The translations under genes were made by a program, and so were the position numbers. A stretch of 64,000 bases of DNA from Clostridia bacterium (GTDB lineage Bacteria; Bacillota; Clostridia; Lachnospirales; Lachnospiraceae), in contig QKJQ01000016.1 in assembly GCA_003249225.1 (NCBI GenBank), positions 124,001 through 188,000 of the forward strand. The letters run 5' to 3'. Below the pieces are notes generated by a model, which did no database searches, was not told the DNA's origin, and saw only the letters and a list, made by a program, of their open reading frames with translations. Shown here one piece after another: positions 23,171 to 23,313 of the stretch. Positions within the stretch are counted from its first letter, which is position 1. Each line of letters starts with the position of its first letter.

Positions 23171-23239
23171 TTTGTATAAGCTCATCAATAGGGGATGAGC
23201 GTCTCGACCGGGCAACCGTAAATTGTCTTAGGCTACAAA
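23171..23239 (+). promoter_or_regulatory. Purine-family (guanine-riboswitch-like) aptamer with a variant binding core; candidate xanthine-sensing riboswitch
   Basis: P1 TTTGTA/TACAAA; P2 GCTCATC/GATGAGC with loop AATAGGG; J2/3 GTCTCGACC (family consensus GUUUCUACC); P3 GGCAA/TTGTC with loop CCGTAAA; J3/1 TTAGGC. Confidence 0.8.
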
Positions 23240-23313
23240 AGCAGATTAGTTGAAATTCAGTGAATTTATTGGTGCGCGGATTTTAATGGTTTGTTTTTGT
23301 AGTCTATTTTTTT
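23231..23313 (+). terminator. Riboswitch-linked intrinsic terminator sharing its 5' strand with aptamer P1
   Basis: GGCTACAAAAGC (23231-23242) pairs with GTTTTTGTAGTC (23293-23304), followed by TATTTTTTT; inner hairpin AAATTC-AGT-GAATTT. Confidence 0.78.

What the first reader, a model, noticed from the sequence alone, without database searches (positions are those of the whole stretch)
23171..23313. Variant purine-family riboswitch with ON-switch architecture at the head of the purine/molybdenum operon
Seen in sequence: the region folds as the guanine-riboswitch three-way junction: P1 TTTGTA/TACAAA, P2 GCTCATC/GATGAGC, P3 GGCAA/TTGTC. The L2 GG and L3 CC (loop CCGTAAA) needed for the kissing loop are kept. 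The binding core departs from consensus: J2/3 is GTCTCGACC instead of GUUUCUACC, so the position equivalent to U51 becomes G. J3/1 is TTAGGC, longer than the usual GAC. The 3' strand of P1 is also the 5' strand of a long terminator stem (GGCTACAAAAGC with GTTTTTGTAGTC, then TATTTTTTT), so ligand-stabilised P1 should block termination (genetic ON). A TTGACA-N17-TATATT promoter sits just upstream. Established knowledge: canonical guanine riboswitches are usually OFF switches on purine biosynthesis/uptake genes, and variant guanine aptamers with altered ligand specificity, including xanthine ('xanthine-II'), have been reported. Inference: this element senses xanthine, urate or a related catabolic purine and induces the 23-kb degradation operon.
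Basis: partly seen in the sequence, partly recalled or inferred. Interest (0 to 1): 0.88.

Follow-up and report, generated by a model that had tools for sequence, protein, structure and literature searches.

The report
Xanthine-sensing RNA switch for urate breakdown
The start of a 23-kb purine/urate-breakdown operon in an anaerobic bacterium carries an RNA switch of the already known xanthine-II class, which most likely lets transcription continue only when xanthine is present; the switch type is known, but its use on a complete reductive urate-degradation operon appears not to have been described.

Summary
Window 23168-23242(+) is a purine-family aptamer (Rfam RF00167, 64.4 bits, gathering score 37; the only one in the genome). 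It lies between a TTGACA-N17-TATATT promoter and a terminator whose 5' arm contains the 3' strand of P1.

A scan of GTDB genomes for this core recovered 11 loci, including the Paenibacillus sp. DMB5 allB leader, whose RNA was shown to bind xanthine. The window aptamer aligns to it without gaps (59/75 identical); the junctions differ only at position 48 and at bases flanking P3. Covariation supports the pairing, and the aptamer/terminator overlap (genetic ON) recurs in relatives.

Downstream, 19 same-strand genes encode molybdenum-cofactor synthesis, xanthine dehydrogenases (one selenium-dependent), HyuA/SsnA/YgfK/YgeX/YgeY (reductive urate pathway) and molybdate uptake.

Verdict: a new member of a known class, most likely a xanthine-activated ON switch. 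It is rare in the family (2 of 397 genomes have G51). The ligand was not measured; urate and guanine are rivals. Many relatives carry U51 (guanine-type) aptamers ahead of guanine deaminase/XDH genes, a separate lead.

The parts
23112..23140 (+). Promoter-like TTGACA-N17-TATATT
   Evidence: 11/12 sigma-70 consensus match; chance expectation about 1 such site in this region, so suggestive only
23168..23242 (+). Xanthine-II riboswitch aptamer (three-way junction, P1-P3)
   Evidence: RF00167 64.4 bits; xanthine-II model R1 89.5 bits (the window was one of the 9 sequences used to build R1); gap-free alignment with the tested allB aptamer; covariation
23201..23210 (+). J2-3 GTCTCGACCG, with G51 at 23206 and C48 at 23203
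   Evidence: Read from sequence; G51 invariant in 12 xanthine-II-type sequences
23187..23222 (+). L2 (AATAGGG, 23187-23193) and L3 (CCGTAAA, 23216-23222) with the GG/CC kissing-loop letters
   Evidence: GG and CC invariant in 12 sequences; the tertiary contact itself was not tested
23228..23233 (+). Extended J3-1 TTAGGC, C74-equivalent at 23233
   Evidence: AGGC invariant in 12 sequences; the RF00167 alignment shows a 2-nt insert here
23229..23313 (+). Intrinsic terminator; 5' arm shares J3-1 and the P1 3' strand; U-run 23306-23313
   Evidence: Hairpin MFE -32.8, z -7.9; whole leader -47.3 with terminator against -33.9 with P1 forced
23411..24430 (+). First gene: molybdopterin-binding (MoCF_biosynth) protein
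   Evidence: PF00994
24485..28804 (+). moaC, moaA, MOSC, mogA-like, xdhC-like, mocA-like: molybdenum cofactor synthesis and maturation
   Evidence: NCBIfam and Pfam
28807..43684 (+). HyuA-type hydantoinase, XDH Mo subunit, Fe-S subunit, FAD subunit fused to D-aminoacylase-like domain, Se-dependent XDH (TIGR03311), SsnA, YgfK, YgeX, YgeY: purine oxidation plus reductive urate pathway
   Evidence: NCBIfam and Pfam; pathway assignment from PMC12507026
43746..46478 (+). Molybdate ABC transporter: permuted ModA, ModB, ModC-like
   Evidence: NCBIfam and Pfam

Best explanation
The leader is a xanthine-II riboswitch working as a genetic ON switch by transcription antitermination. RNA polymerase starts near 23147 and first makes the aptamer (23168-23242). 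If xanthine binds, the three-way junction and P1 are held, so the P1 3' strand and J3-1 cannot pair with 23293-23304; the terminator does not form and the 19-gene operon is transcribed. Without ligand the more stable terminator hairpin takes the P1 3' strand and transcription stops at the U-run 23306-23313. The operon then makes molybdenum cofactor, molybdate uptake, xanthine dehydrogenases and the reductive urate pathway, so the cell builds the purine-degrading machinery when its entry substrate appears. Shown here: the aptamer, class-defining bases, overlap with the terminator, covariation, gene content. Inferred: the ligand (by homology), the direction of control, and read-through into all genes.
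For: RF00167 hit, sole one in the genome. The GTDB pattern scan returned 11 loci including Paenibacillus sp. DMB5; its aptamer core lies 243 nt before an allantoinase/dihydropyrimidinase-like ORF, matching the tested 92 allB construct (KD about 36.5 uM for xanthine, other purines rejected; PMC9295807). Gap-free alignment, 59/75 identical; in the junctions only position 48 and the bases flanking P3 differ. Covariation 7 pairs, 0/500. P1/terminator exclusivity: -47.3 against -33.9 kcal/mol; same overlap in L034, L035, L041, L043, L110. The related family genome G423 has the same element 5' of xdhA-xdhB-selD-yqeC-mocA-yqeB-Se-XDH. Operon content.
Against: No binding or expression data for this RNA. 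P1 is short (6 bp with an A-A mismatch beyond). The R1 score alone does not separate xanthine-II from U51 relatives (L074, U51, scores 87.3), so class membership rests on G51. Energies omit the kissing loop, ligand and transcription kinetics. End-to-end transcription of the operon was not shown; wide gaps precede 25136 and 32429.
Confidence: 0.84

Rival explanations
1. The aptamer senses urate (or 2,8-dioxopurine, the first product of the reductive pathway) rather than xanthine, inducing the pathway by its main substrate.
For: The operon contains the core of the reductive urate pathway (PMC12507026). The unrelated xanthine-I class binds both xanthine and urate (PMC7373994). C48 differs from the tested allB RNA.
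Against: The other core bases are those of 92 allB, which changed structure only with xanthine among the purine analogues tested (PMC9295807). C48 also occurs in other G51 and in many U51 aptamers. Xanthine dehydrogenases are in the operon, so xanthine is an upstream substrate.
Confidence: 0.08
2. It is functionally a guanine sensor (guanine-I or guanine-II like) that induces catabolism when guanine is high, as the U51 aptamers of related genomes ahead of guanine deaminase probably do.
For: In the same family most purine-type aptamers keep U51, and 22 of 38 examined precede a guanine-deaminase-like gene. Guanine-II RNAs share the long J3-1 (PMC9295807).
Against: Position 51 is G here. The paper identifies U51G as a key change between guanine-II and xanthine-II, and the G51 RNA rejected guanine. 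The window operon has no guanine deaminase gene.
Confidence: 0.05
3. A degenerate or non-switching aptamer: the terminator is a constitutive attenuator and the operon is controlled by a protein.
For: Most urate clusters of the family lack a xanthine-II element (68 SsnA-positive genomes, 2 G51 aptamers among 397), so other control exists. Protein control such as DioR is proposed in C. difficile (PMC11448449).
Against: Core bases, kissing-loop letters and terminator complementarity to the P1 strand are all kept, with compensatory changes among relatives.
Confidence: 0.03

Closest known systems
Xanthine-II riboswitch (U51G variant of the guanine riboswitch; tested representative 92 allB, Paenibacillus sp. 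DMB5; PMC9295807)
   Same: Three-way junction, G51, equal J2-3 length, J3-1 with AGGC, L2 GG/L3 CC, overlapping terminator with ON logic, purine-catabolism genes downstream
   Different: Host lies in another family (probably Lachnospiraceae) than the reported Paenibacillus, Propionispira and unnamed Clostridium; C48; J3-1 TTAGGC instead of CCAGGC; weaker P1; heads a 19-gene Moco/XDH/reductive-urate operon rather than an allB-type gene
Guanine-II riboswitch (PMC9295807)
   Same: Same scaffold with extended J3-1, ON logic predicted
   Different: Keeps U51, binds guanine, typically precedes phosphoribosyltransferase genes (compare the U51 loci L074, L096 before a permease)
Guanine-I riboswitch (Rfam RF00167 consensus)
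   Same: Overall fold; the window matches RF00167 above gathering score
   Different: U51, J3-1 GAC, usually OFF on synthesis/uptake genes
Xanthine-I riboswitch (NMT1 motif, PMC7373994)
   Same: Ligand
   Different: Unrelated fold, OFF switch acting on translation; not found in the window

Membership tests
Xanthine-II riboswitch | Guanine-riboswitch three-stem junction with L2/L3 kissing-loop letters | tested here: met
   RF00167 64.4 bits over the full model; GG and CC invariant in relatives
Xanthine-II riboswitch | U51G | tested here: met
   G at 23206
Xanthine-II riboswitch | Class-specific insertions in J2-3 and J3-1 | tested here: met
   Gap-free alignment with the tested allB locus L035 across both junctions; J3-1 AGGC shared. 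Against RF00167 only the J3-1 insert is placed; how J2-3 is drawn depends on where P3 begins
Xanthine-II riboswitch | Genetic ON architecture with overlapping terminator | tested here: met
   (by folding, not by experiment)
Xanthine-II riboswitch | Association with purine degradation genes | tested here: met
Xanthine-II riboswitch | Selective xanthine binding | not testable with these tools
   Needs in-line probing or ITC
Guanine-I / guanine-II riboswitch | U51 in the binding pocket | tested here: not met
   G51; all 12 aligned xanthine-II-type sequences have G51

The most novel reading that the evidence does not exclude
The element is a xanthine-II-derived sensor whose specificity has shifted to a urate-pathway purine (urate or 2,8-dioxopurine), giving the first substrate-specific RNA switch for anaerobic urate degradation.
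Probability: 0.07. Interest if true: 0.72.

Novelty: new member of a known kind. Interest (0 to 1): 0.42.

Why it matters
Anaerobic urate degradation by gut bacteria bears on gout and host urate levels, and its gene control is largely undescribed: the pathway paper consulted here does not mention a riboswitch (PMC12507026). A xanthine-II switch ahead of a complete Moco + xanthine dehydrogenase + reductive-urate operon names a directly testable inducer (xanthine). It extends xanthine-II beyond the reported hosts and offers a ready ON-type genetic part. The wider family pattern (guanine-type aptamers, apparently ON, ahead of guanine deaminase/XDH genes) suggests that RNA sensing of purines is a common way of inducing this catabolism in these anaerobes.

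Tried and rejected
(1) Idea that C48 plus G51 marks a urate sensor: rejected as evidence, because C48 is frequent in ordinary guanine aptamers and in other G51 relatives. (2) Idea that the missing J2-3 insertion relative to the paper's description makes this a new subclass: rejected, because the tested allB sequence itself aligns without gaps. (3) Moco riboswitch as controller of the Moco genes: no Rfam match other than RF00167 in the window. (4) Using model R1's score as a classifier: U51 aptamers reach 87 bits, so base 51 must be read. (5) Weinberg 2017, the 8-oxoguanine riboswitch paper and the xanthine-II crystal-structure paper are not held, so their details were not used. Some of the best hits of the operon's ModA are named Lachnospiraceae bacterium or Anaerocolumna, so Lachnospiraceae is probable only.

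Full report
Observation. The sequence at 23171-23313 is as described. cmscan of the 64-kb window against Rfam 15 gives one match above gathering, RF00167 Purine at 23152-23255(+), 64.4 bits, E 6e-9, with a 2-nt insert in J3-1. It is the only RF00167 match in the 4.24-Mb assembly. A good promoter match (TTGACA-N17-TATATT, 23112-23140) lies upstream, and the first gene starts at 23411.

Class. The known variants of the guanine riboswitch were taken from Hamal Dhakal et al. 2022 (PMC9295807). Xanthine-II is described there by U51G plus insertions in J2-3 and J3-1, an ON architecture and purine-degradation genes; the tested RNA is 92 allB of Paenibacillus sp. DMB5 (xanthine KD about 36.5 uM, other purines rejected). 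Guanine-II is similar but keeps U51. A single scan of GTDB species genomes with a pattern for the G51 core returned 11 loci: eight named Paenibacillus, one uncultured Paenibacillus, a Desulfosporosinus and a Bacillota MAG, with Paenibacillus sp. DMB5 among them. The DMB5 aptamer core lies 243 nt before an allantoinase/dihydropyrimidinase-like ORF, which fits the published construct. The window aptamer aligns to it without a gap over 75 nt, 59 identical. The differences are in P1, P2 and its loop, at position 48, and in the bases flanking and inside P3. G51, the J2-3 length, AGGC of J3-1, and the GG/CC loop letters are invariant in 12 distinct sequences.

More than chance. Among those 12 sequences the stated structure pairs in 93.3% of cells and shows 7 pairs with two-sided changes; none of 500 shuffles reached this, and slid controls fall to 37-59% paired. 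Caution: relatedness inflates such counts, and P2's inner two pairs are open in several relatives. The leader's fold is z -5.5 and its terminator z -7.9 against dinucleotide shuffles.

Switch logic. The free leader favours the terminator (-47.3 kcal/mol); forcing P1 costs about 13 kcal/mol (-33.9) because the P1 3' strand and J3-1 are the terminator's 5' arm. In the stepwise folding, P1 is the predicted state for most lengths between 76 and 130 nt (one length, 112 nt, gave another fold), before the terminator's 3' arm is made. A ligand acting in that window would decide the outcome: ligand bound, P1 held, no terminator, ON. The same overlap is predicted for L034 (Desulfosporosinus), L035 (allB), L041, L043 and L110, and partly for L037; the script did not find it for L103, cut L073 too early and skipped L109 and L105. 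Direction and ligand dependence remain inferences.

Operon. [quoted passage not shown] HyuA, SsnA, YgfK, YgeX and YgeY are enzymes of the reductive urate pathway (PMC12507026). No YgeW/YqeA was seen in the operon, and the D-aminoacylase-like domain may serve as UacY does in C. difficile (inference). No riboswitch is mentioned in that paper, and a literature search for the urate cluster plus riboswitch found none linking them; the library holds open-licence papers only.

Distribution. With a covariance model built from nine G51 sequences, 2 of 397 genomes of the window's family carry a G51 element: the window and G423. In G423 it precedes xdhA, xdhB, selD, yqeC, a mocA-like gene, yqeB and the Se-dependent XDH. 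In a class-wide sample of 394 genomes only the window scored above 71 bits. In the phylum sample a G51 element appears in a few genomes (G716, G600, G614, G520). Three other genomes of the window's own genus had no RF00167 match. So it is sporadic in these lineages; transfer and loss were not distinguished. Model score does not by itself separate U51 from G51 aptamers.

Side lead. SsnA is present in 68 of the same 397 family genomes, and purine-type aptamers co-occur with SsnA (14 genomes with both, 9 and 8 with one only, Fisher p about 2e-7, taking about 120 family genomes). I fetched 40 stretches from 34 such genomes. Of 38 non-G51 aptamers with a downstream ORF, 22 precede a guanine-deaminase-like ORF, often followed by XDH subunits, and two precede XDH directly (ORFs read from their translations; the one tested scored 364.6 bits on TIGR02967 guanine deaminase, cut-off 375.4). 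They keep U51 but often change J3-1 (GTC, GCC, GCGC). Their leaders look like ON switches of two kinds, with terminators pairing with P3 or with P2 sequestering the start codon (read by eye). This deserves its own study.

Verdict. The finding is correct and the interpretation largely right. The element is a further member of xanthine-II, not a new class. Its interest lies in the host and in the operon it controls.

Noticed in passing
window 43746-44603 (+): ModA-like molybdate-binding lipoprotein is circularly permuted: signal peptide, then the C-terminal half, a linker, then the N-terminal half. Many of the best homologues align over 86-100% of its length, and three inspected (P0001, P0004, P0012 Anaerocolumna) have the same order, while P0065 and the L141 copy have the usual order.
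   Followed up: partly
[quoted passage not shown] no YgeW/YqeA was seen in the operon).
   Followed up: no
L121-L160, aptamers listed: In the window's family, U51 purine aptamers, many with altered J3-1 (GTC, GCC, GCGC, GTGC), precede guanine deaminase plus xanthine dehydrogenase genes and look like ON switches; 22 of 38 first genes are guanine-deaminase-like.
   Followed up: partly
L105 2380-2470 (+): A U51 aptamer with xanthine-II-like J3-1 (CCTAGGC) and a complementary downstream strand sits before a xanthine dehydrogenase Mo subunit (guanine-II-like core on an xdh gene).
   Followed up: no
L133 17640-17709 (-), L134 647-715 (+), L132 18766-18834 (-): Odd purine aptamers: one before an adenine-deaminase-like ORF, one with J3-1 TTTA..C before a MATE-type transporter-like ORF, and one with T at the C74 position (adenine type) before a short unidentified ORF (gene names from reading the translations only).
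   Followed up: no
window 39442-41307 (+): YgfK is short (621 aa against a 1012-position profile; only the first ~426 profile positions and an Fe-S region match), suggesting that the FAD part is absent and a different electron donor is used.
   Followed up: no
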